Assembly (NCBI RefSeq): GCF_000970685.1
Contig: NZ_LAJB01000017.1
Coordinates: 1-64,000 of the forward strand
From: Domibacillus indicus
GTDB lineage: Bacteria > Bacillota > Bacilli > Bacillales > Domibacillaceae
Direction: 5' to 3'
DNA length: 64,000 bases
Shown: positions 21,340 through 60,202 of the stretch, one piece after another
How the letters are laid out: every line of letters begins with the position of its first letter
Numbering within the stretch: position 1 is the stretch's first letter
Made by a program: the position numbers and the translations under genes
Notes under the pieces: model-generated
Seen by the model: only the letters and a program-made list of their open reading frames with translations
What the model was told of the DNA's origin: nothing
Database searches by the model: none

Positions 21340-22440
21340 TTACAATTTTACATATAGATATTCTACTAAACATAAAATCGCCATCGACTGGCCATATGGC
21401 ATGGCCGTAACCGGAATTTGCTTGTAAAACTCAAGCGTTTCGCCCATAGCGGTGCCGGCAGACACATGCTGCAGCGCGCCGGTTTCATCAATGTTTTCAA
21501 TAACAGCTTCGACCGCTTTTAAGCCCATTTCTTTATACTTTTTCCCGACATACCGCTTACGGACGGCTTTTAATGTGCCAAAACCGAAGCCGGCTGTACA
21601 GGAAGCCTCCACGTATGAAGTCGGATCAAGCAGCAGTGTGTGCCAGAGCCCGTTTTCATTCTGGCACGTCTGCAAGGCTTCCAGCTGCCGTTCCAGTGTG
21701 TCAATCAGCACCTGGCGGACCGGATCATTAGCCGGAAGCTCGACCAGGTCAAGGAATTCCGGAATCGCGATCGTAATCCAGGAGTTGCCGCGTCCCCATA
21801 GCGCTTCCGCGAAGTTATGATTTCCTTCAAACGTCCAGCCGTGGAACCAGAGGCCGGTTTTTTTATCAAATAAGTACTTGATGTGCACAAGAAATTGCTT
21901 TTTCGCTTCTTCCACATATTCGGGCTTGTCCAGCAGCAGGCCAATTTTTGTCAGCGGAAGCACACTCATCATCAGTGTATCATCCCAGAGCTGCTGGTTG
22001 TTTTCCGAACCGAAGACAACATGCTGAATGCCGCCGTCTTTTGTCCGCGGCATATCATGATACAGCCAGTCACCCCATGACTCCAGATACGGCAGGTATG
22101 TTGGGTTTCCTGTTTCTTCATACAAATAAGCCATCGTTAACAGCTGCACCATTGTGTTCACGTTTTTCTCAACAGGCTGCTCTTTAAACTGATCCTCAAA
22201 CCACTTGACGACAATATCAAGAACATGCTGCTTTTTTGTCAGCTTATAATATTTCATCATGCCGTACAGGCCAACGCCTGCCGTCCATTCCCAGTAGTTA
22301 AAGCTCTTGTTATCAATCTTCCGGCCATCCGCAAGCGGAATCGCGTATTTACCGTCCGGATCGTTTAAATTTACCAGATTATCAATAAGCAGCTCAATGG
22401 TTTGTTCAATGTCATGACGATGCGTATGCGTTGCGATCAC
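21340..22440 (-). CDS. GH105 unsaturated rhamnogalacturonyl hydrolase (YteR/YesR-like)
   Basis: This 366-aa alpha6/alpha6-barrel hydrolase removes the unsaturated uronic acid left by lyases. Family segments include WEWTAGVGLYGMMKYY (about 49-64), the probable catalytic Asp in QLWDDTLMM (about 148-156), ALWGRGNSWITIAIPEF and the C-terminal LQHVSAGTAMGETLEFYKQ. No signal peptide, so cytoplasmic. The start is GTG 22440 after GGAGGAGG; upstream ATGs lie inside lplD. It overlaps lplD by 29 nt and is last in the yesO-type operon. Confidence 0.87.
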   Translation of the reverse strand: MIATHTHRHDIEQTIELLIDNLVNLNDPDGKYAIPLADGRKIDNKSFNYWEWTAGVGLYGMMKYYKLTKKQHVLDIVVKWFEDQFKEQPVEKNVNTMVQLLTMAYLYEETGNPTYLPYLESWGDWLYHDMPRTKDGGIQHVVFGSENNQQLWDDTLMMSVLPLTKIGLLLDKPEYVEEAKKQFLVHIKYLFDKKTGLWFHGWTFEGNHNFAEALWGRGNSWITIAIPEFLDLVELPANDPVRQVLIDTLERQLEALQTCQNENGLWHTLLLDPTSYVEASCTAGFGFGTLKAVRKRYVGKKYKEMGLKAVEAVIENIDETGALQHVSAGTAMGETLEFYKQIPVTAMPYGQSMAILCLVEYLYVKL

Positions 22441-23818
22441 GAACAAAACCTCCTCCAACATGTGATTTTGTATTCTCAATCATTTCCTCAAATAACGCTT
22501 CCGCCTGCTCCAGCCCAATTGGTGCAACAAGTGGATCATTCACAAAAGCATTAAAAGCCAGCTGTCTGTTTTCTTCAAAAGCTGCTTTCAAAACGGCTTC
22601 CTGGTTTGCCACGTGACGGCTGATCATTCCCTGCAAATCAACCGGAAGGCTGCCGGCCAAAACAGGCTGTACACTGTTGAAGCGAAGAACCGCATTGGTT
22701 TCTACGACTGCGCCATGCGGCAAGTTCGCAATCTGCCCGTTGTTTGGCATATTCACATTCGTCACCAGCTCTTCAAGACCGAGAAGAGCGGCAATAATAG
22801 CTACTCCTTCTTCTCCCGATGGTGCAAGCTCGAAATTCTCTTCCCCGGCTGCCACTTTTTGATTCCGCTCAACTTTCATTTGTTGATCTTTAACACGAAA
22901 GTCAACCGGTGTTAAATGAAACTTCCACTCTTTTACTTTTTCCGGGCTTTCCAAATAAACGGGCGGCATAAATTCTGCCAGATGGCGGTCACCGGCTGCG
23001 GCAATTAAGCCATAGCGGTTAAACAGGTCAAATTTCACCCGGTTCGCCGATGAAAATACGCTGTTCACCCAGCTGCCCGGCTCCTTTTCGTAGCCCGTTT
23101 CTGCATACTTTTGTACGAATTCTTTATAAAGCGGCATCAGGTCGATATTTTGATAGCTGGCCCGGTCAATCCAGGTGAAGTGATTAATGCCGAGCACATT
23201 TACATGAATGTCCTGCCGGCGTTCAACTGCTCTTCCTGTCATTTCTTGCACCATGTCAGCGAGCAGGTGCTGCACTTCAAACACTTCGTGGCAGCAGCCA
23301 AATGCTTTTATTTCAGGAAAGACTTCATATAGTGTTCGGGTGCATAACGTCATTGGATTTGTATAGTTAATCACCCACGCATCGGGAGCATATGCTTTAA
23401 TATTTTGGGCGATCTCTTTGTAAATCGGAATGGTCCGCAAAGCGCGAATCATTCCGCCCGGGCCCACTGTATCCCCAACGGACTGGTAAATGCCATACTT
23501 CTCGGGGGCATGAACATCTGAAGCCATTTCATCGAATGAGCCTGGCAAAATCGAGATAATAACAAAGTCCGCATCGGCCAGTGCTTCTTTTATGTCACCG
23601 GTTGCTTCGTATTTCCATTTGCCAGCAGCTTCTGGGCGTTCTGATACGCGGTTGCCGATTTCCGCATTTTTTCGGGCCGCTTCTGGATGAATATCGTATA
23701 ACGAGACCATGCCGCTTATTCGCGGCTCAAGTGCCAGATCGTTCATTAGCCGCTTTGCCCAGCCCTGTGAACCGCCTCCTATGTAAGCAATTTTCACATT
23801 CTCGACTTTATGATTCAT
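22412..23818 (-). CDS. lplD: GH4 alpha-galacturonidase (LplD-like)
   Basis: This 468-aa NAD+/Mn2+-dependent GH4 enzyme has the Rossmann motif AYIGGGSQGWAKR (about 11-23), VINYTNPMTLCTR, the metal Cys-His in GCCHEVFE and GINHFTW. It is closest in pattern to B. subtilis LplD, described as an alpha-galacturonidase; other GH4 specificities (alpha-galactosidase, 6-P-glucosidase) are less likely in a pectin operon. ATG 23818 with an AAGAAGGTG ribosome binding site; overlaps the GH42 gene by 11 nt. Cytoplasmic. Confidence 0.85.
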   Translation of the reverse strand: MNHKVENVKIAYIGGGSQGWAKRLMNDLALEPRISGMVSLYDIHPEAARKNAEIGNRVSERPEAAGKWKYEATGDIKEALADADFVIISILPGSFDEMASDVHAPEKYGIYQSVGDTVGPGGMIRALRTIPIYKEIAQNIKAYAPDAWVINYTNPMTLCTRTLYEVFPEIKAFGCCHEVFEVQHLLADMVQEMTGRAVERRQDIHVNVLGINHFTWIDRASYQNIDLMPLYKEFVQKYAETGYEKEPGSWVNSVFSSANRVKFDLFNRYGLIAAAGDRHLAEFMPPVYLESPEKVKEWKFHLTPVDFRVKDQQMKVERNQKVAAGEENFELAPSGEEGVAIIAALLGLEELVTNVNMPNNGQIANLPHGAVVETNAVLRFNSVQPVLAGSLPVDLQGMISRHVANQEAVLKAAFEENRQLAFNAFVNDPLVAPIGLEQAEALFEEMIENTKSHVGGGFVRDRNAYASS

Positions 23819-46105: not shown

Positions 46106-48430
46106 CTAGCTTCCATCCGCTGCTTCCCTTTGCTTTCGAAATTGACTGGGCGGAATCCCCATCTGTTTTTTGAAAATCCGGTTAAAATAACTGTGGCGAT
46201 ATCCGACGCTTTCTGCCACATCATTAATTTTCATATCTGTATTTGCGAGCAGCTCTTTTGCTTTCTCCATTCGCAGGTCCGTTAAGTAATCGATAAAATT
46301 GATGCCCGCTACTTGTTTAAACGCTTTACTTAATGAATAAGGGTTTGTTCCCACTTCATCGGCACAGCTTTCAAGTGAAATATCCTGCATATATTCTTTT
46401 TGTATCTTTACTATGACGGATTCGACGAGCCTTTTTAGCTCTACATTCATGCGTCCTTTTATTTGTTCTAAATACGGCATAATCACCTGATTCATAAACC
46501 ACTCAGCAGTACGGTTTAATTCGCGGATTTGTGAGAGTTCTTCAATCATGTTTTTTCCATTGAATAATTCATGAGGGTGAATGCCTGAATACAATATTTC
46601 ATGTTGAATGCTGCTGTACAGCTGAATAATACCCTGCTGTACATAAATTCCGTTGGCGCTTTTCTCTTTCAGCTCCATTAAAAATTGATAAATCAATTCA
46701 TGTATCTCTTCTACTTCACCCATTCGTATTGCTTGAATAATCTCTTTTTCAATCGGGAATGGGTAGCGAACTTCTTTTACAGCATTTTCTTCCGTTGTAT
46801 GCAGCAGGTCAATAATCTGATTTTGGTTATCAACTGCCCGAAGCCGGCTTCCCATCCTTATCTCTTCAAACAATTGGGGAATCTGTTTAATCGTTTCAGC
46901 CGGTTTGCTTAACGTAACCGTTACTTGCACATTCATAATCTCATTGACTGCGTTTGTCACCTGCTCAGAAAAGTGGAGCAGTTCGCTGCGGATATTTGTT
47001 TCCGCGGGATAGATAACGAGTACACCTGCTGAAAGATCCGAGAATCGTATAACCGTATAGGAATTAAAAAAATTCTCGCCAAGCTCCTCCAGTATATTCG
47101 CGGTCATAAACGCAAGAAGACTCTCATCCTGATTAGAAAAATTCCCGGCTGAATCATGAATGCCGGTCAGCTGTACACCCAGGGCGGTGAATGACTGTCC
47201 CCTTACCTCCCATCCGTAACTTTCCATTCTTTTTTGTAAATCCTGTTCATTGTAATAATAAAAGGAACCCTGCATGAGCTGTAAAAGAAAGCTTGTTTTA
47301 ATATCATCGACTTGTTCCGAAAGGCGGTTCTGCAGAAGGGCACTTTTTTCCGAGAGAGCTTCCCACTGCTGTTCAATCATAAGAAATTCATCTTTTCCAT
47401 CTACATTCAGCTTTCGGTCCTGTTCTCCTAGTAGATTTTGAATTAAACGGTTAACGGGTGAATAAATTCTCCTGGATGCGATCCACGAAAGGATCCAGGC
47501 AAGCAATAAAGCACTTGCACTAATAAAAATAATCAGCCTTGAAACGAATAGCAGCGGTGCCGTAATCGAAGACATCGGGGCAGCAGAAACATACGTCCAC
47601 TGGTCATTGATTCGTGAAAACGCTCCTAATGAAACAGAATACGTATTTCCGTTGTACTCATATAAAAAAGCTTTCTCGTTCTTCTGGTTTTCCTCTAAAT
47701 ACCCTTTTAAAGCGCTTACAAATTGATCATTATGTGTGCTGTTGGATGCCAGTATGATCTCTCGCTCTTCATTCATAATAAAAGTAGCACCTTTATCATA
47801 CGGGGTTAATGTTTTCAGCAATTCGAGTGATTTTTGGCGGTCTACTGTCACAATAATAGAGCCAAATGGCCGGCTGCTTGCAGCAGGAATATTCTGCACA
47901 AGCGCCAGTGTGCCATTGCTGTCTGGCAGCTGTACCCACTGAATCGATTTTCCTTTTTCTAAATTTTTCTCGTAAAAAGAGCTTCTCTCATCAGTTAATA
48001 CATTGTACTCATTGCTGAATAAAATCGGCTTGTCTGTGTTTAAATATAAACTCACTTTGTTTATCAGCACATGATTGCTTTGCAGCAACAGAAGTGTTTT
48101 GGTTATATCATAAGTTTCTTCAAAGTCTTTTACAAAGTCAATTTCCTGCAAGCTATCGCCAAAGCGAGGTTCAAACGCCCAGCGGGAGGTTGAATATTCA
48201 ATGTAATTAAACTGTTCATCCATGTTTTTCGCCCGCTGGTCAATTTGGTTTTCATGGAGTGTTTGAAGCTCTTTCTCTACATTTTGAATCACAAACCAGT
48301 ACATACTCAGTCCGGTAATTAATCCAGGTATGCTGGCGATGAGCAGAATGAGAATAAAACTTTTCCGCTGAAAGCTTCCTTTCAATCGGAGTTTATTTAT
48401 TTTTTTCAAAATAAAGTTATTATTCTTCAT
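46106..48430 (-). CDS. yesS: Membrane-anchored AraC-type regulator (YesS-like)
   Basis: This 774-aa protein has two membrane helices (about 22-45 and 290-312) around an extracellular sensor and a C-terminal AraC HTH (ESCADEVGTNPYSLSKAFKQVAG; DVAESVGYRHSYFNRIFKKQMG). It has no kinase or receiver domain, so it is a one-component sensor that binds DNA from the membrane. ATG 48430 follows GGGGAGGG. Expected to control the adjacent lplABC and lyase/hydrolase genes. A cre-like site lies upstream. Confidence 0.88.
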   Translation of the reverse strand: MKNNNFILKKINKLRLKGSFQRKSFILILLIASIPGLITGLSMYWFVIQNVEKELQTLHENQIDQRAKNMDEQFNYIEYSTSRWAFEPRFGDSLQEIDFVKDFEETYDITKTLLLLQSNHVLINKVSLYLNTDKPILFSNEYNVLTDERSSFYEKNLEKGKSIQWVQLPDSNGTLALVQNIPAASSRPFGSIIVTVDRQKSLELLKTLTPYDKGATFIMNEEREIILASNSTHNDQFVSALKGYLEENQKNEKAFLYEYNGNTYSVSLGAFSRINDQWTYVSAAPMSSITAPLLFVSRLIIFISASALLLAWILSWIASRRIYSPVNRLIQNLLGEQDRKLNVDGKDEFLMIEQQWEALSEKSALLQNRLSEQVDDIKTSFLLQLMQGSFYYYNEQDLQKRMESYGWEVRGQSFTALGVQLTGIHDSAGNFSNQDESLLAFMTANILEELGENFFNSYTVIRFSDLSAGVLVIYPAETNIRSELLHFSEQVTNAVNEIMNVQVTVTLSKPAETIKQIPQLFEEIRMGSRLRAVDNQNQIIDLLHTTEENAVKEVRYPFPIEKEIIQAIRMGEVEEIHELIYQFLMELKEKSANGIYVQQGIIQLYSSIQHEILYSGIHPHELFNGKNMIEELSQIRELNRTAEWFMNQVIMPYLEQIKGRMNVELKRLVESVIVKIQKEYMQDISLESCADEVGTNPYSLSKAFKQVAGINFIDYLTDLRMEKAKELLANTDMKINDVAESVGYRHSYFNRIFKKQMGIPPSQFRKQREAADGS

Positions 48431-48498
48431 AACGCCGCCCTCCCCTGACATAATTTTCATATGCTTTACAAATATTATGTCATAATCACACCTTTTTA

Positions 48499-48574: not shown

Positions 48575-49465
48575 TCATCCTTTTACGGAGCCAAGCAGCA
48601 TTCCTTTTGCGAAGTGCTTTTGCAGAAATGGATAAATAATTAAAATAGGCAGTGTGGCAATAACAACTACTGCCAGTTTTAATGACTGATCCGGCGGGGT
48701 CACATACTCTGCACCCGTTGCAGCCGTATCACCTATTGTGGACTGGGACAGTAAAATAATCTGCTGAAGCAGTACCTGTACCGGCCACTTCGAGCTATCA
48801 CTAATATACAGGAGCGCACTGAAGAAATCGTTCCAGATGGCAACAGCGTAAAACAAAGCAAATGTTGCAATCACTGGCTTGGATAGCGGAAGCATGATAC
48901 GCCAGAAAATACCCAATTCCGTGCATCCATCCACCTTTGCTGATTCTTCTAACTCAATCGGAATGTTTTGGAAAAATGTTTTTACAATAATTAAGTTAAA
49001 CGGATTAATTGCAATTGGCAGAATTAACGCCCAGTAAGAATCAAGCAGGCCAAGTGATTTAACAACGATGTAAGTCGGAATCATTCCTCCGCTGAACATC
49101 ATCGAAAAAACAACCATGTTCATAAACAAATTGCGCCCTGCTAAATTCCTTCTCGATAATGGATACGCCATAGAGAAAGTAAAGAATAAGCAGACAATCG
49201 TACCAACAACTGTTACACCAATTGAAACCAAAATACTGCGTATAAATCTGTCAGTTGAAAAAATATACTCATAGGCTTCCAGGGTGAATGTCTCCGGGAA
49301 GATAAAAAAGCTTCGGCTCGTTAGTTCCGCTTCCGTTGCAAAAGATCCTGCAATCACATAAAGAAAAGGAATAATCATTAAGATGCCGATCACGCCGAGA
49401 ACAACAAAATTGACGACATCAAATATTCTTCCGCCCGGCGTATTATGCATTTTAGGCATTCCCAT
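48575..49465 (-). CDS. lplC: Oligosaccharide ABC permease (LplC/YtcP-like)
   Basis: This 296-aa CUT1 (MalG-type) permease has six membrane segments and the EAA loop IELEESAKVDGCTELGIFWRIMLP (about 172-195). LplC and YtcP of B. subtilis are close relatives and cannot be told apart here. AGGAGGTG ribosome binding site. Third gene after the binding protein and LplB-like permease. Confidence 0.9.
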   Translation of the reverse strand: MGMPKMHNTPGGRIFDVVNFVVLGVIGILMIIPFLYVIAGSFATEAELTSRSFFIFPETFTLEAYEYIFSTDRFIRSILVSIGVTVVGTIVCLFFTFSMAYPLSRRNLAGRNLFMNMVVFSMMFSGGMIPTYIVVKSLGLLDSYWALILPIAINPFNLIIVKTFFQNIPIELEESAKVDGCTELGIFWRIMLPLSKPVIATFALFYAVAIWNDFFSALLYISDSSKWPVQVLLQQIILLSQSTIGDTAATGAEYVTPPDQSLKLAVVVIATLPILIIYPFLQKHFAKGMLLGSVKG

Positions 49466-49486
49466 TTCTCTGCACCTCCTGTTTTG

Positions 49487-50470
49487 TTAAAAAATTCCCT
49501 CTTGACCCATTTTCTTCGCTAATTTGTTGGCACCAAGAACGAGAATAATCCCAACAACAGACTTAAACAGCCCCACCGCCGTACTGTAACTGAATGCTCC
49601 CTGTGTAATTCCGACAAAATAAACATACGTATCAAATACATCCGCTACATCACGATTTAATGAATTAGTCATTAAGAAAATTTGCTGAAATCCCGTGTCT
49701 AAAAAGTTGCCAAGCCGCAAAATAAGCAAAACAATAATTGTACTTCTAACTGCTGGAAGGGTCACATGCCAGAGCCGTCTGAACCGGCCGGCACCATCTA
49801 CAATTGCTGCTTCGTACTGCTCCTGGTCAACTGTCGCAAGTGCTGCCAGGAAAATAACTGTTCCCCAGCCTGTTTCCTTCCAAATTATCTGGCCCATGAT
49901 AAGCGGCCGAAACCAGTCGGGAGAAGACAAAAAGTTAATTTCTTTTCCATAAAAATGGGCAACAATTTCATTCGCCACACCACCGCTTGTTGTAAAGAAA
50001 ATATACGTAATACTGGCAATGATGACCCAGGACATAAAATGCGGTACATAAATAAGTGTCTGGACCGTCCGTTTATACAAATTAATTCTAAGCTCATTTA
50101 AAAGCAATGCTAAAATGATCGGTGCTGGAAAGAAAAATACTAAATCCAATACCGCCAGGATAAATGTGTTTCGCAAAAGCCGGAAGAAATCCGGGTTTTG
50201 AAAAAAGTTTTTAAAATGGTCAAACCCAACCCATTCGCTTCCAAGAACTCCTTTGAACGGCGAATAGTCCTGAAAAGCAATAATAAGCCCCCACATCGGC
50301 GCATACTTGAAAACAATAAAATACAGCAGCCCGGGAATCAGCAGCAAATACAGCCATTTATCTTTTTTTAAGCGTTTCAGAAATGTTTTCATAGATGAAT
50401 CTGCGGGCTTTGCCTGCGGCACATCAACAGCCAGTTCAGTTTGAGAAGAATTTGATTTAAATAAAGACAT
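49487..50470 (-). CDS. lplB: Oligosaccharide ABC permease (LplB/YteP-like)
   Basis: This 327-aa permease has the LplB signature YLLLIPGLLYFIVFKYAPMWG (about 40-60), VIAFQDYSPFKG and EAA loop YEAAIVDGAGRFRRLWHVTLP. It forms the channel with the LplC-like subunit and works with the large lipoprotein upstream. No ATPase gene is linked. AAGGAGGG ribosome binding site. Confidence 0.9.
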   Translation of the reverse strand: MSLFKSNSSQTELAVDVPQAKPADSSMKTFLKRLKKDKWLYLLLIPGLLYFIVFKYAPMWGLIIAFQDYSPFKGVLGSEWVGFDHFKNFFQNPDFFRLLRNTFILAVLDLVFFFPAPIILALLLNELRINLYKRTVQTLIYVPHFMSWVIIASITYIFFTTSGGVANEIVAHFYGKEINFLSSPDWFRPLIMGQIIWKETGWGTVIFLAALATVDQEQYEAAIVDGAGRFRRLWHVTLPAVRSTIIVLLILRLGNFLDTGFQQIFLMTNSLNRDVADVFDTYVYFVGITQGAFSYSTAVGLFKSVVGIILVLGANKLAKKMGQEGIF

Positions 50471-50536: not shown

Positions 50537-52054
50537 TTACTTTTGTGCTTCTTTATAAAGTTTGTTAATCTCTTCAATATAGTCATTTCCGCCTGATGTT
50601 TTCCAAAGCTCAATGGCCTCTTTGAAGCCTGCTTCATCAATTTGGCCGACGATAAATTTAATTCGGGCATCATTGATAATATTGTCAAGCTGCTGTCCTT
50701 TTTGAGCATACACTTCAGATAAAAGAGCTTCTGCCGGATTTGGTACGACAATCTCTTCGTTTTCCACTTTTACCTGTTCTTCTTTTTCAATAAGAGGTGT
50801 TAGTTCCTCTGTATAAAAACGATTTTCAGGGATTCCTGTCTGGAATTGATTCAAATCAACAAATTCATTGGCACGCGGGTCCGTTAACTCAACAAGCGGC
50901 TTATACTGATCTCCTTCAAGCTCATAATGAGTCCCTTCCACACCGTTATAGGCAAGGACTTGTGCTTCCTTTTCACTTAACTTATCGATAAATGCAAGTA
51001 CTTCTTTCAGCTCTTCCTCGGTTTCAACACTTGCTTTCGGAATAGCCAGCATTCCTGAATAGCCCGATGTCGGCAGATTAAACAAGCCATTTGGCCCTTC
51101 CACCGCTCCGAATACATCAAGCGGCTCTTTCAACTCCGGTTTCGCCTGCAGCATTGTTTCCTCTGCCCGGTGAGCACGGTCCAGTACATCCACAATCGTT
51201 CCTGCCTGGCCGTTTAAAAGCGGGTCTCCCCATTTCTGTGGGTCCATCACAGCAAAGTCTTCATTGATCAGCCCTTCATCATAAAGCTTTTTAAAGAATT
51301 TTTGCGCTTCAAAGTATTCATCCGTCATAAAATCCGGCTGAAGCTTTCCATCTTTATCTTCACCCCATTTGTTTGGAGCGCCGAACCATGTCTGCATAAC
51401 ATCAAAAGGACCCGTATATTTAGAAATAACCATTCCATATGTGTCATTCTTGCCGTTTCCATCCGGATCTTTCTCTGTAAAGGCTTTCATAGTGTTGTAA
51501 AATTCATCAATTGTTTTTGGGTTTTCCATTCCTAAATTTGTAAGCCAGTCTTTTCGAATGATTACACCATTTCTGCCAAGCGGCCTTGCACGGTAGATGC
51601 CGTAAATCTTTCCATCGATTGAACTGTTTTGCAAGGTAATTTCGTTTGCCTGGCTTAAATTAGGATAGTCCTTTAAATACGGACCTAATTCCCAGAATGC
51701 ATCATCTCGGACAGCGCTTACAAAACTAGGCAGCTTTGTTGGGATCATAATAATTTCAGGAAGGTTCCCCGATGCAAGCGTAATGTTTAATTTATCTGCA
51801 TAAGCACTATCAAGCACCCAGTTCATTGTAATGTCTTTTCCGGTAAATTCTTCCAGTTCTTTCAAAGCCGGACTGTCCTCCGCCGGCGGTTCAGTTGTGT
51901 AAGCAGTTGTCATGATGGTAATAGAATCTTCTGATCCTTCGCCTGAAGCATTATTTTCTTCATTACCGCCACAGGCAGCTAAAGAAGCGACCAGCATAGA
52001 CGAGAGAATGGGAAAAGCAATTTTGTTTCTTGACCATTTCTTGGATTGTTTCAT
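50537..52054 (-). CDS. lplA: Large oligosaccharide-binding lipoprotein (LplA/YtcQ-like)
   Basis: This 505-aa binding protein has a signal peptide and lipobox LAAC (Cys 28). Mature segments such as MNWVLDSAYADKLNITLASG (about 77-96), RARPLGRNGVIIRKDWLTNLG and DPDGNGKNDTYGM (a Ca-like loop) are characteristic of the LplA/YtcQ group, which binds rhamnogalacturonan-type disaccharides. Starts a unit after a 157-bp gap. Confidence 0.9.
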   Translation of the reverse strand: MKQSKKWSRNKIAFPILSSMLVASLAACGGNEENNASGEGSEDSITIMTTAYTTEPPAEDSPALKELEEFTGKDITMNWVLDSAYADKLNITLASGNLPEIIMIPTKLPSFVSAVRDDAFWELGPYLKDYPNLSQANEITLQNSSIDGKIYGIYRARPLGRNGVIIRKDWLTNLGMENPKTIDEFYNTMKAFTEKDPDGNGKNDTYGMVISKYTGPFDVMQTWFGAPNKWGEDKDGKLQPDFMTDEYFEAQKFFKKLYDEGLINEDFAVMDPQKWGDPLLNGQAGTIVDVLDRAHRAEETMLQAKPELKEPLDVFGAVEGPNGLFNLPTSGYSGMLAIPKASVETEEELKEVLAFIDKLSEKEAQVLAYNGVEGTHYELEGDQYKPLVELTDPRANEFVDLNQFQTGIPENRFYTEELTPLIEKEEQVKVENEEIVVPNPAEALLSEVYAQKGQQLDNIINDARIKFIVGQIDEAGFKEAIELWKTSGGNDYIEEINKLYKEAQK

Positions 52055-52211: not shown

Positions 52212-54782
52212 TCACTTTATTGCCGGCATTGTCTTTTCTTGCAACTGGACTTCCGGGAGCGAATCTCCGATCCATTCAAGAGCCATAATTGTGTTTAGTG
52301 CCCACTGTGATGCAGTATTTGTAGTGATGGAAGGAATCTCCTCCATCTCCCTCCACGCCTTCACTTTATTTGATATAATTGGAAGCTGCATCTCACTGAT
52401 AGCCGGTGTAAGCAGCAGCTCCCATGCTTTCGCAGCAAGCTGTTCATCTTGTTTATAAGCTGCCGCATATGCAACCATTCCGGCAGCGAGCATAGGCAAA
52501 GGGAAGAAATCATTATGCAGTACTCCATTTGTGCGGTTTCTTTTTTCTTCATCGCTTAGCACATAAAAAGCACCGAACTCTGCCAGCATGGCTTCCCACT
52601 CTTTATCTTCAAAAGTATCTGCCATCTCCATCCATACTTGCGGTGCACCGAATGCGATCGTCATATGATAGCTGCCTGCCGTCCCGTCGCCTTTATGATG
52701 AAGCACGGAGGTTTTTGGATCGTAACCGAATGTTGGCCCTGACAAAAGCCGAAGCGGCAGGCTTTTCAACTTATTCATTCCTGTTTTTATTTTTTCTTCG
52801 TACATTTCATTCTCGGTATGTTCCCATTCAAACAGCCAGTTCGAACAAAAAGCAGCCCAGTCCGGCCCGGTTCTGGCGTGTGTTTTATATTCATCGTCCG
52901 GATAAAACTCCCTCATCGGATCCAGTGAAGCAATCGCTTCATCGGCATCTTTTACACTTTCCAGCAAATCGCGGGTCCGCTCGTCAGTTGTTAAAAAATA
53001 ATAATATTTATGAAGGCCTGCCATACTAATCCGGGCCTCTTTACAGCCGCAGCCCCAGTGTGAAACATTATGACGTGAGCCGAGGCCTTTATATTCGCCG
53101 AAATGATAGCGGTCCACTTCACTTGTATGGCGTGTCATTGCTTCTGCCATGCTGAAAATATCACTTCTTCCCGACCGCAAAAACGCATACCAGAGCCATA
53201 TATTCGGCACAAGCTCCGTGTTCTGCCAGGCAAAGCCTCCCAGGTCATAGCGCCATTGATGGCGAACCGCATCATACGTGTGCATAACATCCCCATAATT
53301 CCAATAACCGTACCATTTTCTTTGCTCAATTTCGTTCTGGTAAAATGCAATCGCTCTGTCAAGCTGCTCTTCTATCTTCACTTTTTTTGGGTTTTCTCTA
53401 TCCGGCAAGCTCCATCTGCCCAGTGATTTGTTCTGGTGATAATACTCGGGTTCGCAGACAAGCAGCTGCGGCTGCTGCCATTCGTTTAGTGTATTCATTA
53501 AGAAAGAATGCTCTGGATTCTGGCTGAAGCATTCAATAACGATTTCACTTGTATTGGCTACACCGTAAGGAGTTGCTCTTAGCTCATCAAATCCTTCATA
53601 CGCACTTACAACGTGGGTTTCGTCCGTATAATGACGCAAATCCATTGCTTCTGCATCAGGTGCCCAGAACCAGGCAGTCAAGGCAGCTGCGGATTGGTTC
53701 AAACCATTCACTTCCAGAGACGACGGATGCTTCTGCCAGAAATTTTTAAAACGGATAACCAGGCCGTTTTCTTCACTGCCTGCATACATCAATCCTTGAG
53801 CCCTTGAGCCTTGGGCCGCATCCAGCCACGCATGTCCTTCTTTTGTCCGTTTTTTTATAAAATACGTATCTGATGAGGTTTGTGAGATTTTAAAATCGTT
53901 CCAAATTGAATTCTGCCGAACATTCTCAAGCAGCGGACCAGTGATATTTACTTTCTCTCCACGAATTTGTTTCTCAAAAAGGCCGCCTGCATCCCGATGG
54001 CGTCTTGTCAGCAAAAGCTGGGCCGGCTCTGAAAAAATCCCTTCATCTCCTGCAAAACGGACATTCCTGTTCCATGGCTCACCGGACATTGGCACTGAAA
54101 AAGTCATTCCAACTCCTTTTATAAAATCCTTATTTGGATCGCCGTCATAAAAAAAAGTGTGGACGATCCGTAAGGAATTCATGTTTTTATATGCATATAA
54201 ACGGATGACAAATGGCCAGACGGCGGAATGTCCCAATTGTTCCTGGTGAACCCCTTCTATTTTAATTACACAGCGGATCGGGCCTTCTTGTTCGATACTG
54301 GCACGCTGAACCCGGCTGCAAAGTGTTCTTTGCTTTTGAATAAAAGTTCCCTCATTTTGTTCTCTTGTTTCATGAACAATGACCGCTTTCCCGTTTTCCC
54401 CAATGATTTTGTCATTAAGTTTAATAGATTTGATAACCTCTTCTCCCTGCTTCATTACTTGAACCTGAAGCGGGCCGGTACTTATATAAATTTCACTTTC
54501 TGTTTCTGTAACCATTTTTTCTTTATCCGCCGGCTGCCGGCCGCTGCTTTTTTCAAGCTGATATTCACTGGCTGCCGTTTTGAATACAGCAGACTGTCCC
54601 GTCCATTTAATGCTTCCATCCGGCCAGTATGCCATTGGCCATGATTGGACCGGAATCTCCTTCCCTTGCTCGTCTGTTAAAGAAAGAGCTTCCCCTTTTT
54701 GCAGCTCTCCTTTTTTTCATGGCACTCCCCATGAAATACCAGTTTGATCAGTCGGTTGTTTGTTTAGCCAGTGCAGTTTCAT
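52212..54782 (-). pseudogene. yetA: PL26-type exo-rhamnogalacturonan lyase (YetA-like) interrupted by TGA
   Basis: The natural start is ATG 54782, 6 bases after AAGGAGG. It encodes MKLHWLNKQPTDQTGISWGVP, then TGA at 54717-54719, then in the same frame KKGELQKGEALSLT...SWPMAYWPDGSIKWTG. The stop sits where a Trp (TGG) is expected, so one G-to-A change explains it. The remaining 835 codons are open to 52212, with intact segments such as FFYDGDPNKDFIKGVG, AWFWAPDAEAMDL and GLGSRHNVSHWGCGCKEARIS. Read through, the product is 856 aa, about the size of B. subtilis YetA. Restart at ATG 54635 would drop the first strand and lacks a well-placed ribosome binding site. Sequencing error is possible. Confidence 0.75.
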
Positions 54783-55029
54783 CCTGTTCCTCCTTATCTT
54801 CATTTAGTAAAAGAGCGGAAAGAAAAATAAGCGCAAGTCCCTGTCCCCAGCCCTGAATTCTTTTTTTAGGTGTTTCTTTGTAGCCGGTTTTATCACGCAT
54901 AACCGCTGTTCCTGCTAAAACACTTAATACTGCGCCGTCATGTGCTGTGTGATCCATTAAAAAAGTCCGGTCAACGATCTGGTCAATCGTTTTTGTTATT
55001 TCTGGTTTATCTATTATCAGTTTTGGCAT
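54748..55029 (-). pseudogene. GH105-like remnant with internal deletion (93 aa)
   Basis: The open frame is short but has a good GGAGGAAAAG ribosome binding site. Its N-terminus (ITKTIDQIVDRTFLMD) looks like a GH105 start and its C-terminus (AGTAVMRDKTGYKETP, then RIQGWGQGLALIFLSALL) aligns with the end of the intact GH105 at 21340-22440 (VSAGTAMGETLEFYKQIP, YGQSMAILCLVEYL). About 270 central residues appear to be missing in frame. It overlaps the yetA start by 35 nt. Alternatively it is an unrelated small protein; the fit is by eye. Confidence 0.5.
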
Positions 55030-55047: not shown

Positions 55048-56232
55048 TTAGTTCACAGCTTCTGTACCCGGAAGCATTTCAAACTCCGGCACTTCCGCTA
55101 TGTAGACATGTCCATATCCGCTCATATCACTTGTAAACAGCACTTTTGAACTGTCCGGACTGAAGCGCGGATGTATATGAACATGCTGCGTTTGAAAGCT
55201 GCCGCGATGACGGCATAGTTTTCGAGGTCCCTGCATCTTCCCATTTTCCTTTTTCCAGAGAAAGATATAATCCTGTGCAGTACCGTCGGGGTAAGCACTT
55301 GACTGCTGCCCATCCCCAACAATAAGCTCAGTATTATTTGAATGAATATGCATATTTTGATAAGGAAACGCATACTCTTCCGCATCGGTGTTATCAAAAC
55401 GGATGGAGCCAATAAACTTTCCGTCTTTTCGATTCAATGATTCCGTAAAGCCATGATAGCCAATCCTCACTCCATCAGCGTGCCAGTATTCATGGCCGGC
55501 ATACTCTCCTTTCTGTCCGTTCCTTACTTTCCATGCCTCTCCTGTTTTTAAATTCAGTGCCCAAATCCGATGATCGACATTTTCCCATGGGCCCTCATGA
55601 CAAAACGTTAATAAGTCTTTCTGTGTTGGAGAAGTATTGACATGGCCAATCCAGCGTTTTTCTTCACGGACTATACGTGCTTTTTTTGTCTCCAGCTCTA
55701 CTGTCCAAATTTGACTGTGTGGACGGGCTTTTTCTATTTCTTCAAATCCAACATAGCCCTGCCCTAAATTGGCGGCGATCAAATCACTGACATCTTCACT
55801 TATGCCAAAGCAAAGCGACTCTCCATCAGCGGTCACGGACAAATTGCTGAACTGGAAGCCTGCCGGCAGCTGAAACAAGCTTTTTTCTTCATATGTGTCC
55901 AGGTTGAGCGCAACAATAGATTCATTTAAAGTAAAATACGCTTCATTTTTTTTTGGATTGATATAAGTGCCCTGAATCCCTTTTTTTGCTGCTGGATCCA
56001 AGTCTGTCAGCTGCACGAGTTCACCTGATGAGATATCAATGCTGTATAAATTCAGTGCATTTTCACGCTCTGAGCCAATTAATAGCTTTTTTCCATTGTC
56101 GTACCAGCCGTCGTTTGTAAAATACAAATGAAAGTGATGGCTTAAATAACTGGTCAACTGTGTAATTGTTACACCTGTTGCCGAGTCCCGAAAGACCTGC
56201 TTTTCACTTGCCCACACTCTTCCTTTTCCCAT
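55048..56232 (-). CDS. ogl: Oligogalacturonate lyase (PL22)
   Basis: This 394-aa seven-bladed beta-propeller lyase cleaves unsaturated digalacturonate into 5-keto-4-deoxyuronate, the KduI substrate. PL22 features: TGVTITQLTSYLSHHFHLYFT (N-terminal His pair), RWIGHVNTSP, GHEYWHADGVRIGYHG and the metal-site TQHVHIHPRFSPDS near the C-terminus. No signal peptide; intracellular. It starts within the end of the upstream GH42 gene (64-nt overlap). Confidence 0.88.
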   Translation of the reverse strand: MGKGRVWASEKQVFRDSATGVTITQLTSYLSHHFHLYFTNDGWYDNGKKLLIGSERENALNLYSIDISSGELVQLTDLDPAAKKGIQGTYINPKKNEAYFTLNESIVALNLDTYEEKSLFQLPAGFQFSNLSVTADGESLCFGISEDVSDLIAANLGQGYVGFEEIEKARPHSQIWTVELETKKARIVREEKRWIGHVNTSPTQKDLLTFCHEGPWENVDHRIWALNLKTGEAWKVRNGQKGEYAGHEYWHADGVRIGYHGFTESLNRKDGKFIGSIRFDNTDAEEYAFPYQNMHIHSNNTELIVGDGQQSSAYPDGTAQDYIFLWKKENGKMQGPRKLCRHRGSFQTQHVHIHPRFSPDSSKVLFTSDMSGYGHVYIAEVPEFEMLPGTEAVN

Positions 56233-58232
56233 CCTGATTCCCCGCTCTCTGTTTTAAATTGAATAACTGTGTATTCATACGGACCGACTTTTAATGTTCC
56301 CTTTTGGATATTTTTTCTCTTTAACAGATCAATACCATCCTTTGGCAGTGTAATGCTGCCCCCTTTGCCATCCATGTTGATAACCACCCATACTATTCCC
56401 TCATCATTAAATCGTGGGGCAACGATAGTTCCATTTTCAGCATCCGTCTGTAAACCTAAGCCTGCTTCTTCCGCATAATGATGAATCAGCTTTTTAAGCA
56501 TCCGGTCTCCCGGCTCTCCGGCCGGCATAGAACCGAGCATGACGATTTTTCCTTTTCCGATCCGGCTTTCGGATAAAAATGATTTTCCGACACTCATTCC
56601 CTGCTTGATGTGTCCCATTGCCCGACTGCTCTTGTCGTCAAAAACTGCACTCCACATGCTGAGTACGGCTTCTTCTCCAAAAGCGGAGCCGACTGAATCC
56701 GTTCCATCCATCGGATACGTTTGAAGCACTTTTACATTCGCTGCCTGCTCTAAACAGCCAAGTGCCGCTTTTGTATGAATGGTATGCTCTTTTGTTCTGC
56801 CGCCGGTAAGAGGGCCTGCAAGCCAAATGCCGCCTTGCTCTGCAAATCGCCGGGCGCGGTCAATATATTCGTCTGATAAATAATGAATAAATGGAGTAAA
56901 TAAAAGCTTATATCCCGATAAATCAGCTTGTTCTGGGATAAGATCACGATGGATGCCCATTTTCAGCAATCTTTCATAAAAGTCAGTAATCAAACTTCTA
57001 TACTGAAGCTTCTGGTGTGGTTCCGTCTGCAAAAATACCTTTGCCCGATCTGAATACGTAATCGCTGCTTCAGCTTGAAGCGGTCTGGTATGAAGCAGGA
57101 TTGGCTCTAATTCCTGCCGGGCTTCTTCAACTTCAAGAACATTTTTATATCCAATCGCCGGTGTGCCCCACGCACTAATAATGGAGCCATGCGGCTGCTC
57201 ACACCCGGTTCTTTGCTGGCGCCATAACCAGTAGCAAAACCCTTCTGCACCCAGAGAATAAGCCGCTGCCGCTTCTGCTTTTACATAGCCGTCTGGATGC
57301 GGGCTTGCATACCCGGCCAGTGAACCGCTGTAGGAAGGGCTGGTTTCCATCACCCAGAAAGGACTGTCTTTTTTCACATTTCTCCAATAATCGCAGTTGA
57401 TTAAATAAGCTGCCATATTTTCCTGAGAGGCGTACGTATCATACGAAGCAAAATCCAGCTGCTGAAAAAGCTCTTCATTATCCACCTGAAAAGCAATACT
57501 GCTGTTATGGGTAATAGGCTGGTCACAACACTGCCGAATAATGGCCGCCTGCTCATTCGCAAATTCGGCGGTTTTTTCCATTGAAAAAATCCGGTAATTG
57601 GTTACAAGAGAAGAATTGTGCAGGAACGGTGTTGCAGCCGGCTGCGGAACTTGTTCAAATGATTGATAATGCTGGCTCCATATGTGTGTGCCCCACTTTT
57701 CATTCAGCCGTTCTATTTTCCCAAACTTTTTTTCAAGCCATTGATGCCAGAGATTTTCACATGTACTGCAGAAACATTCTGCAACGTGGGATTTAAATTC
57801 ATTATCCAGCTGCCAGGCAATAACACCCGGCAGACTGCCAAGCTCCTGGGCCAGATGCTTTGTCACTTCCCCCGCTTTTTTTCGAAAATATTTATTGTTT
57901 GTACAAATATGCTGGCGGGAGCCATGGCCCATTTTTTGTCCTTCCTGATTTACAAACAGCCTCTCTTCAAAACCGTGAGTCAGCCAGACAGGAGGTGTCG
58001 GGGTTGGTGTGCATATAATGGTCTCAATCCCGTTATCATAAAGTGTTTGAATTACTTCTTTAAAAAAAGTGCTATCCAGGCTGCCTTCTTCAGGCTCAAT
58101 GGACGACCAGGCAAATTCGCCTATTCTCACAACATTAATGCCCGCCTCTTTCATTAGCTGTATGTCCTGCGCGATTGTTTCTTCATCCCATAATTCCGGA
58201 TAATAAGCAGCACCATGATAAAGTTTTTTCAT
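56169..58232 (-). CDS. GH42 beta-galactosidase, copy 2
   Basis: This 687-aa paralogue of the GH42 at 23808-25784 keeps the acid/base Glu (WQLDNEFKSH), nucleophile Glu (PFWVMETSPSYS) and the Cys zinc site (CFCSTCENLW). It has a longer C-terminus (about 30 residues beyond YEYTVIQFK) that overlaps ogl. ATG overlaps the PL11 stop (ATGA). The second copy sits in the YesX/PL22 cluster, so the two may be induced by different regulators. Confidence 0.9.
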   Translation of the reverse strand: MKKLYHGAAYYPELWDEETIAQDIQLMKEAGINVVRIGEFAWSSIEPEEGSLDSTFFKEVIQTLYDNGIETIICTPTPTPPVWLTHGFEERLFVNQEGQKMGHGSRQHICTNNKYFRKKAGEVTKHLAQELGSLPGVIAWQLDNEFKSHVAECFCSTCENLWHQWLEKKFGKIERLNEKWGTHIWSQHYQSFEQVPQPAATPFLHNSSLVTNYRIFSMEKTAEFANEQAAIIRQCCDQPITHNSSIAFQVDNEELFQQLDFASYDTYASQENMAAYLINCDYWRNVKKDSPFWVMETSPSYSGSLAGYASPHPDGYVKAEAAAAYSLGAEGFCYWLWRQQRTGCEQPHGSIISAWGTPAIGYKNVLEVEEARQELEPILLHTRPLQAEAAITYSDRAKVFLQTEPHQKLQYRSLITDFYERLLKMGIHRDLIPEQADLSGYKLLFTPFIHYLSDEYIDRARRFAEQGGIWLAGPLTGGRTKEHTIHTKAALGCLEQAANVKVLQTYPMDGTDSVGSAFGEEAVLSMWSAVFDDKSSRAMGHIKQGMSVGKSFLSESRIGKGKIVMLGSMPAGEPGDRMLKKLIHHYAEEAGLGLQTDAENGTIVAPRFNDEGIVWVVINMDGKGGSITLPKDGIDLLKRKNIQKGTLKVGPYEYTVIQFKTESGESGWEKEECGQVKSRSFGTRQQV

Positions 58233-60055
58233 TTCTGTACGTTCACCTCGTTTGGGTAATACAGGTCGGGCGCAGGCGGCTTTTTCATGTTATGGCCAAG
58301 AAAAAAACCCGGATGCGGCGACTGATTATACGCCACATTCTGCCATGCGACTGACAACCGGTAGACTGGGTCATGCATTAATGTGTAAAAACGATAGTCA
58401 GTTTCATCTGTTGTTGTATAAATACGCAAAGATTTGCTGTCTGCTGACCGCCAAATCACTTCTTCCCGCCAGTCGCCGAACAAGTCGGCCTGCAGGCAAG
58501 GGTTTCCTTTTGTTCCATTATTCGATCGAGTTCCTTTTGCTGTTAATAAATTGACAAGCCGGCCATTTTCATAATCCCATTTGTCAATTCGCCCAATGCC
58601 AATGCCCGTTTCCATGTCATATTCATGGTCAAGGAGCTCACGCAGCAAATCGCCATCCCACCAAATGGCGAAATTAAACGATTGCGGGCTTTGCTCACTA
58701 ATTCGTTCCCCCGTACTGCTGTATAATCCGCCGTCACCATCCCGCCAGTGTGTAGACGACCAGAGCTCCGCCCCTTCATAACGCGGATCAATATCTGCCG
58801 CCATTCCTCTTCCCACATCTTCAAAAGACGGAATGCTCCATAACAGCTCACCTGTTTGTGCATCATGAATTTCAGTTCCATGATCGGATGGGGTTTCGTG
58901 AACCTGGAATATCTCCAGTCCTTCTCTGGATGGAATAAAGCTGCTGACATGAATGGCATCCCCATGACCAAGCCCGGTTGTATAAAGTCCGGTCCCATCG
59001 TGGTCGATCACACAGGAGCCATAAATAATCTCATCACATCCATCGCCGTCAACGTCGGCTACACTGACACTGTGGTTGCCCTGGCCGCTGTACCCTTCAT
59101 TTGCGGGCTCCAGGCTGTCAAATGTCCACACTTTTTCAAGCCGGCTGCCGCGCCAGTTATACGCCGCCAGCACTGCTCGTGTATAGTAGCCCCGGCACAT
59201 CACAATGCTCGGTCTTTCTCCATCTAAATACGCAACACAGGCAAGAAAACGGTCAACACGATTGCCCTCATCATCTCCCCAGTCTATTCCCCGGCCTCGT
59301 GGAGGTTCGTACTCAATCGTTTCCAGCGCTTTACCTGAGATGCCTTCAAAAACGGTTAAATATTCAGGACCCTCTAAAACGAACCCTTTTTGATTGCGAT
59401 AGTCCATGTCAGAATCGCCAATAACCGCTCCTGTTCCATCAATTGTTCCATCTGCAGTTTTGCAGACAATCTCTGCTTTTCCGTCGCCATCAAAGTCATA
59501 TACTAAAAATTGTGTATAATGAGCGCCGGCCCTTATGTTTTTTCCTAAATCAATCCTCCATAAGTGCGTGCCATCCAGCTTATAAGCATCCAGCAGCACG
59601 CTGCCTGTATAGCCGGCATGGGCATTGTCTTTGGAATTTGTCGGGTCCCATTTTAAAATAATTTCGTATTCCCCGTCTCCGTCTATATCTCCCACGCTTG
59701 CATCATTTGCCGAATACTCGTATTGAATATTATCTGGCGTTATGCCGCCGGGCGGTTTTTGAAGCGGCACCGATAAGTAGTTCGTATCCCAAACAGCTGC
59801 TTCTTCAAAATCAGGCTTCTCAATTCCGCCGATCAAAGGCCTCACCTGATAAGTAGATGTACCGCTTCCTTCTTTATCTAAATAATTTGTGCCGGACTGA
59901 AGTTCTTTTGCGATGCATTGGCCGTCACGGTAAACTGAAAAAGAAACGGATTGTTCTTCATGCCCGAGTAAACGCCAGCTCAGATAAACGCCTTTTTCTG
60001 TTTTTATGGCGATTAACCCCCGGTTCAGCTTTTCCATTTGCCTCGTTTTTTTCAC
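58229..60055 (-). CDS. yesX: Rhamnogalacturonan lyase PL11 (YesX-like)
   Basis: This 608-aa beta-propeller lyase carries several calcium loops (VGDIDGDGEYEI, VYDFDGDGKAEIV, VADVDGDGCDEIIYG) and the PL11 segments LNRGLIAIKTEKGVYLSWR and GDWREEVIWR. It lacks a signal peptide, matching the intracellular exolyase YesX rather than secreted YesW. Start is GTG 60055 after AAGGGAGG (9-nt spacing); longer ATG readings add a Lys-rich stretch without support. First gene of this cluster. Confidence 0.9.
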   Translation of the reverse strand: MKKTRQMEKLNRGLIAIKTEKGVYLSWRLLGHEEQSVSFSVYRDGQCIAKELQSGTNYLDKEGSGTSTYQVRPLIGGIEKPDFEEAAVWDTNYLSVPLQKPPGGITPDNIQYEYSANDASVGDIDGDGEYEIILKWDPTNSKDNAHAGYTGSVLLDAYKLDGTHLWRIDLGKNIRAGAHYTQFLVYDFDGDGKAEIVCKTADGTIDGTGAVIGDSDMDYRNQKGFVLEGPEYLTVFEGISGKALETIEYEPPRGRGIDWGDDEGNRVDRFLACVAYLDGERPSIVMCRGYYTRAVLAAYNWRGSRLEKVWTFDSLEPANEGYSGQGNHSVSVADVDGDGCDEIIYGSCVIDHDGTGLYTTGLGHGDAIHVSSFIPSREGLEIFQVHETPSDHGTEIHDAQTGELLWSIPSFEDVGRGMAADIDPRYEGAELWSSTHWRDGDGGLYSSTGERISEQSPQSFNFAIWWDGDLLRELLDHEYDMETGIGIGRIDKWDYENGRLVNLLTAKGTRSNNGTKGNPCLQADLFGDWREEVIWRSADSKSLRIYTTTDETDYRFYTLMHDPVYRLSVAWQNVAYNQSPHPGFFLGHNMKKPPAPDLYYPNEVNVQK

Positions 60056-60202
60056 AGCTCTGTTCCTCCCTTTTTTGTATGCGCTTTCACTTTCTGTTAC
60101 ATTACCTTTCTTTTTTCTTTCCGGCAATGACACTCTTTTGAGAGAGAAGGCACACCGCTAATTGAGACATTTTTGAAAAGTTGCACTTTCTTGATAATAC
60201 CT

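What the first reader, a model, noticed from the sequence alone, without database searches (positions are those of the whole stretch)
54717..54719. In-frame TGA at codon 22 of an otherwise intact yetA/PL26 gene
The frame is open on both sides, the start has an excellent ribosome binding site, and the stop falls at a position where tryptophan fits (VP-stop-KKGELQ). This is either a very recent nonsense mutation, a sequencing error, or readthrough. It matters because the enzyme would attack rhamnogalacturonan from its end, and a silent single-base loss would reroute the pathway to the PL11 lyase.
Basis: partly seen in the sequence, partly recalled or inferred. Interest (0 to 1): 0.6.

Follow-up and report, generated by a model that had tools for sequence, protein, structure and literature searches.

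The report
Pectin-enzyme gene with early stop codon
A bacterial gene for an enzyme that trims pectin carries a stop codon where its relatives usually carry tryptophan, next to a second damaged gene, so it looks like an ordinary recent loss of function rather than a new way of reading genes.

Summary
Codon 22 of a PL26 (YetA, exo-rhamnogalacturonan lyase type) gene on the minus strand is TGA (54719-54717). The rest of the frame (codons 1-856) is open, the start has a strong ribosome-binding site, and the position is Trp in 30 of 38 diverse homologues and 25 of 25 relatives from the same group of bacilli. No internal stop was seen in the matched stretches of those 38 loci or of PL26 copies in 24 other genomes; one further locus (Aquibacillus) is a decayed fragment. 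No usual start codon lies between codon 22 and Met50, and starting there would remove most of the N-terminal domain.

Two neighbouring genes of one operon are thus damaged, favouring a real, recent nonsense mutation over a sequencing error; reads were not available. UGA reassignment and selenocysteine are unlikely. Low readthrough as Trp is plausible: UGA is leaky in Bacillus, and both tRNA-Trp genes carry A24, the base of the E. coli Hirsh suppressor. But the relatives examined share A24, and nothing shows selection for readthrough. PL11 and three full-length GH105 genes remain. Ordinary; low interest.

The parts
52212..54782 (-). PL26 (YetA / PcRGLX-type) open frame, 856 codons if codon 22 is read through; the only PL26 copy found in the genome
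   Evidence: 5XQ3 match E 5.6e-147 over residues 3-846
54717..54719 (-). In-frame TGA, codon 22, at the conserved Trp position of the family
54789..54795 (-). Shine-Dalgarno sequence AAGGAGG, 6 nt before the ATG at 54782
54633..54635 (-). First ATG/GTG/TTG codon in frame after the stop (Met50, MAYWPDGS); the frame from here keeps only positions 53-82 of 83 of the N-terminal domain PF19501
54748..55029 (-). 93-aa remnant of a GH105/GH88-type hydrolase gene: about 26 N-terminal and about 67 C-terminal residues, about 260 codons missing between; its 3' end overlaps the PL26 start by 35 nt
55048..56232 (-). PL22 oligogalacturonate lyase-type gene, profile matched at positions 1-384 of 386
56169..58232 (-). 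GH42 beta-galactosidase gene, apparently intact
58229..60133 (-). PL11 rhamnogalacturonan lyase gene, apparently intact
   Evidence: RGL11_C positions 1-490 of 490, RGI_lyase 1-86 of 86
50537..52054 (-). Probable solute-binding lipoprotein (no Pfam hit; named from its sequence; same neighbour in relatives)
48575..50470 (-). Two ABC-type permease genes (49487-50470 and 48575-49465); named from their sequence and from matching neighbours in Neobacillus, not from a family search
46106..48460 (-). AraC-type regulator
21340..22479 (-). GH105/GH88 gene elsewhere in the window, one of three near full-length copies in the genome

Best explanation
A recent nonsense substitution in the yetA/PL26 gene of a rhamnogalacturonan-I operon in a bacterium of the Bacillus group. 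Most ribosomes that start at 54782 stop after 21 residues; re-start downstream is poor, so the enzyme is nearly absent (a loss-of-function or strongly reduced allele). The operon was already losing parts, since the gene just upstream is an internally deleted GH105-type hydrolase. PL11 and the other GH105 genes probably carry rhamnogalacturonan breakdown. Shown: the stop, Trp conservation, open rest of the frame, the upstream remnant by similarity, the other genes. Inferred: that the base is real, that the enzyme is lost, which lesion came first, and that PL11 covers the pathway.
For: Trp at the site in 30 of 38 and 25 of 25 homologues. No internal stop in the matched stretches of the 38 covering loci (the stops counted in L024 and L030 are the natural ends) nor of the PL26 copies in 24 other genomes: 14, where G108's TAA is the natural end, and 10 further ones. 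No in-frame ATG/GTG/TTG between codon 22 and Met50. No second PL26 copy in the genome. The upstream ORF matches a 349-aa Clostridium GH105-type protein at its end (51 aa, 55%, E 4e-18) and at its start (a weak alignment of residues 1-60, 28%, E 8e-4, of which residues 1-26 hold 10 identities by my count), both in a two-sequence comparison. The rest of the PL26 gene is fresh: 153 of 156 family-invariant columns kept, within the spread of 26 sequences (0.916-1.000), and zero stops in 834 codons bounds neutral substitutions at about 57-65 (2.3-2.6%). TGA is a working stop here: 11 of 28 family-matched window genes end in it.
Against: No reads, no second strain: PL26 was not found in the other 12 genus genomes or the other 23 family genomes. 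The 93-aa remnant scores below Pfam's cut-off (22.1 against 26.6 bits), so its identity rests on similarity to homologues. No test shows that the operon is unused. The enzyme is otherwise so intact that an error, or residual function by readthrough, cannot be excluded; its constraint is not visibly relaxed.
Confidence: 0.72

Rival explanations
1. Sequencing or consensus error at one base; the real gene is intact and normal.
For: Single base in an otherwise open gene; the A of the TGA is the first base of a run of seven A, a context where some chemistries miscall (recalled). The assembly is a draft of 32 contigs; its platform is unknown to me.
Against: Genome 99.42% complete, 0.12% contaminated; many window genes match their main profile nearly end to end with no obvious break, though I did not test each for frameshifts; the neighbouring gene carries an independent lesion that a base-call error does not explain.
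Confidence: 0.14
2. Leaky but useful allele: tRNA-Trp reads the UGA at a few per cent, inserting the residue that relatives carry, so a low dose of complete YetA is made and the allele is tolerated or even favoured.
For: Wild-type B. subtilis reads a UGA in catA86 at about 6% (PMC7918605, Discussion part 1 of 2). UGA followed by A is prone to misreading by tRNA-Trp in E. coli (PMC5289835, passages). Both tRNA-Trp genes have a 5-bp anticodon stem, anticodon CCA and A at position 24 (my numbering), the base of the E. coli Hirsh suppressor G24A (G24A from PMC13092985, passages).
Against: A24 is shared by 28 of 28 full tRNA-Trp genes in the 17 genomes that gave one, so nothing here is special to this gene or genome. 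An E. coli reporter library names G as lowering and T as raising termination; A is not named in the passages I saw (PMC11126739). The stop is not shared with any homologue examined.
Confidence: 0.07
3. Re-start at Met50 (or a slip at the A run after an overlapping ATGA) yields a shortened but working enzyme.
For: ATG at 54635 opens an 807-aa frame with the central and C-terminal domains nearly complete.
Against: No Shine-Dalgarno at a usable distance by eye: AAGGAG ends 21 nt before the ATG. It would lose positions 1-52 of the 83-position N-terminal domain and five columns invariant in 25 homologues: L6, G19, P21, W22, G25. The ATGA frame gives 37 aa then a stop; runs of 7 or more A are common in this window's genes (16 in about 36,478 bases).
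Confidence: 0.06
4. Recoding: UGA reassigned to Trp, or selenocysteine.
For: The residue lost is Trp and the codon is UGA.
Against: 11 of 28 window genes end in TGA; RF2 is present, with a CTTTGAC frameshift site; no tRNA-Sec over the Rfam cut-off, best 42.3 against 47 bits; homologues have Trp (or Phe, once Leu), not Cys or Sec.
Confidence: 0.01

Closest known systems
Nonsense pseudogenes and in-frame stop alleles of bacterial genes (surveyed in PMC7918605)
   Same: Single in-frame stop in an otherwise intact gene, apparently young, not shared by the homologues examined
   Different: Nothing essential; here it sits beside a second damaged gene of the same operon
YetA / PL26 exo-rhamnogalacturonan lyase (PcRGLX, PDB 5XQ3)
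   Same: Similarity over residues 3-846 when codon 22 is read through; all three Pfam domains; Trp at the site
   Different: Stop at codon 22; activity untested
Leaky UGA in Bacillus subtilis (catA86-TGA, about 6%, as cited in PMC7918605)
   Same: UGA inside a gene of a bacterium of the Bacillus group
   Different: Readthrough not measured here

Membership tests
PL26 (PcRGLX/YetA) | Three-domain architecture PF19501 + PF21345 + PF21346 | tested here: met
   The 807-aa frame already hits all three over their cut-offs, the first only at positions 53-82 of 83; read through, the protein aligns with 5XQ3 over residues 3-846
PL26 (PcRGLX/YetA) | Exo-lyase activity on rhamnogalacturonan I | not testable with these tools
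   needs an enzyme assay
Nonsense pseudogene | Premature in-frame stop at a position that is sense in homologues | tested here: met
Nonsense pseudogene | Base present in the organism, not a sequencing error | not testable with these tools
   no reads, no sister strain
Nonsense pseudogene | Relaxed constraint on the rest of the gene | tested here: inconclusive
   153 of 156 invariant columns kept, within the range of homologues; no close relative for dN/dS
Programmed stop-codon readthrough | Stop conserved at the same place in orthologues | tested here: not met
   no internal stop in the matched stretches of the 38 covering loci or of copies in 24 other genomes
UGA-to-Trp reassignment | TGA not used as terminator; UGA-reading tRNA-Trp or lost RF2 | tested here: not met
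   TGA ends 11 of 28 genes, RF2 present, the two tRNA-Trp genes found have anticodon CCA; the genome was not scanned for a UCA-anticodon tRNA
Selenoprotein | tRNA-Sec in the genome | tested here: not met
   no hit over the Rfam cut-off; selA/selB were not searched
GH105/GH88 (upstream 93-aa ORF) | Catalytic barrel between N- and C-terminal ends | tested here: not met
   middle about 260 codons absent relative to a 349-aa homologue; a remnant, not a working member

The most novel reading that the evidence does not exclude
Because tRNA-Trp in the Bacillus group naturally carries the Hirsh-type A24, Trp-to-UGA mutations in these bacteria could be systematically mild, reversible 'dimmer' alleles instead of null alleles, and this yetA allele would be one caught in the act, lowering the exo-lyase while PL11 takes over.
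Probability: 0.07. Interest if true: 0.45.

Novelty: new member of a known kind. Interest (0 to 1): 0.13.

Why it matters
As it stands it matters mainly for annotation: the locus should be marked as a probable yetA pseudogene beside a GH105 remnant, and the strain should not be counted as having a working PL26 exo-lyase without a check. If readthrough proved strong, it would suggest that Trp-to-UGA changes in the Bacillus group are often mild, which would affect how pseudogenes are called there.

Tried and rejected
Scan for genes split by an in-frame stop (window plus 400,000 other bases of the genome, codon-usage score): 16 sites passed, 14 TAA, 1 TAG, 1 TGA; in 14 of 16 a start codon follows within 7 codons, as between adjacent genes. 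The scan did not flag the focal TGA itself (only 21 codons of the gene lie upstream), so it has no power for such cases and I draw no rate from it.

4-bp anticodon-stem tRNA-Trp (PMC13092985) as a cause: rejected, both genes have 5-bp stems. E. coli tRNA-Trp as a direct comparison: the search gave no match, so G24 in E. coli rests on the paper's wording 'G24A'. Selenocysteine: the tRNA-Sec search gave 23 sub-threshold hits, some of them exactly where ordinary tRNA genes lie; the controls behave likewise (14 of 14 ring, 5 over the cut-off). Plasmid search with the 807-aa protein: 10 records, all under 60% identity, no near copy. Promoter/terminator scan: counts not above shuffles, not used. Sister-strain check: not possible; PL26 was found in no other genome of the genus or family that is held. 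Structure prediction was not run: the Pfam boundaries and the 5XQ3 alignment already answer what would be lost. PMC10057733 was looked at by passages and not used; the other papers were seen as listings only.

Full report
WHAT IS THERE. The minus-strand frame from ATG 54782 to TGA 52214-52212 has 857 codons including its own stop, and exactly one further stop, TGA at codon 22 (54719-54717). AAGGAGG stands 6 nt before the ATG. From Met50, the first ATG/GTG/TTG after the stop, the frame gives an 807-aa protein that hits the two large PcRGLX domains nearly complete (PF21345, PF21346) but only positions 53-82 of 83 of the N-terminal domain PF19501. Read through, it matches the fungal exo-rhamnogalacturonan lyase PcRGLX (5XQ3, E 5.6e-147, residues 3-846), which has Trp at the same place. 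No second PL26 copy was found in the genome.

IS IT TRP IN RELATIVES? Of 39 loci found in genome contigs, 38 cover the site: W 30, F 7, L 1. Not all 38 are full length in the match (L026, L033 and L041 end early), so internal stops were checked within the matched stretches; two that seemed to hold one (L024, L030) hold only their natural end. In genome searches, PL26 was found in 14 other genomes among 397 searched in the order (15 matched, one being the own genome) and in 10 further genomes in the class search of 398 (14 matched: the own genome, three already seen, ten new). None shows an internal stop in the match, the one TAA reported (G108) being the natural end. One of the ten, G761, is matched only from residue 33. 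PL26 was not found in the other 12 genus genomes (one of them only 77% complete) or the other 23 family genomes searched, so no near relative of this copy is at hand to date the change. That the organism belongs to the Bacillus group is an inference: one same-order genome carries a PL26 protein identical over the aligned stretch to that of Bacillus solitudinis (L051 and L011).

A SECOND LESION NEXT DOOR. The 93-aa ORF at 54748-55029 looks like the start and the end of a GH105/GH88-type hydrolase joined in frame. Its C-terminal part is 55% identical over 51 aa (E 4e-18) to residues 288-338 of a 349-aa Clostridium protein of a similar locus. Its start aligns weakly with that protein's start (residues 1-60, 28%, E 8e-4, two-sequence comparison); residues 1-26 hold 10 identities by my count. 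About 260 codons between are missing. Pfam sees GH88 at 22.1 bits, below its 26.6 cut-off. Eight of 14 PL26-bearing genomes of the order hold 11 matches to it, inside frames of 343-397 codons, one of them with a TAA inside. The genome keeps three near full-length GH88/GH105 genes elsewhere, and the PL11 gene of the cluster is complete by its profiles. In Aquibacillus (L038) no match to residues 1-381 was found and the remaining half is frameshifted (71% identical over residues 382-674), which looks like an independent loss. In Neobacillus L003 the order GH42, PL22, PL26, binding protein, permease is the same as here, with only 11 nt between PL22 and PL26 and no 93-aa ORF.

HOW OLD. Across 26 sequences, each was scored for the columns invariant in all the others. 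This copy keeps 153 of 156 (0.981), ninth from the bottom in a range of 0.916-1.000; it differs at H63Q, A292S and R655H. So relaxed constraint is not visible. With 4.5-5.1% of single changes making a stop, zero stops in codons 23-856 bounds neutral substitutions at about 57-65, or 2.3-2.6%. This is a loose bound and assumes neutrality since the stop.

CAN THE CELL READ IT? TGA is an ordinary stop here: it ends 11 of 28 window genes that match a family (27 by Pfam, one by NCBIfam only), and RF2 is present with a CTTTGAC frameshift site. The two tRNA-Trp genes found have anticodon CCA, a 5-bp anticodon stem and A at position 24 (my numbering of the D-stem). 28 of 28 full tRNA-Trp genes share A24: two own and 26 from 16 relatives (25 genomes searched, 7 without a match; a truncated match in G017 and a partial one in G031 left out). 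The search used this tRNA as bait, so divergent tRNA-Trp genes may have been missed. The E. coli Hirsh suppressor is G24A (PMC13092985, abstract and passages). B. subtilis reads one UGA at about 6% (PMC7918605, abstract and Discussion part 1 of 2), and UGA-A is prone to misreading by tRNA-Trp in E. coli (PMC5289835, passages), although an E. coli reporter library names G as lowering and T as raising termination and does not name A in the passages I saw (PMC11126739). So a low level of full-length enzyme is plausible but not shown, and nothing indicates that readthrough is selected here. One paper search combining A24, tRNATrp, Hirsh suppressor and Bacillus subtilis listed six papers (at least three of four terms); I opened none of them, so I make no claim about what is in print on A24.

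VERDICT. A probable recent nonsense mutation in a decaying part of a rhamnogalacturonan operon, with sequencing error the main rival.

Noticed in passing
54748-55029 (-): 93-aa ORF that joins the two ends of a GH105/GH88-type hydrolase, with about 260 codons missing between; a likely in-frame deletion remnant.
   Followed up: yes
L038:8001-9412: Aquibacillus rhizosphaerae keeps only the second half of a PL26 gene, frameshifted: apparently an independent decay of the same enzyme.
   Followed up: partly
L061:1476-1549, L062:1469-1542 and relatives: All 28 full tRNA-Trp genes examined in 17 genomes (own and 16 relatives up to order level) carry A24, the base of the E. coli Hirsh UGA suppressor.
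   Followed up: partly
52212-54782 (-): PL26 was found in this genome only among the 24 held of its family, so the gene or the cluster may be horizontally acquired or a lone survivor.
   Followed up: no
G611, G674, G721, G753: In four class-level genomes the PL26 match is split near residue 118-130 within one open frame, suggesting an insertion between the N-terminal and central parts.
   Followed up: no
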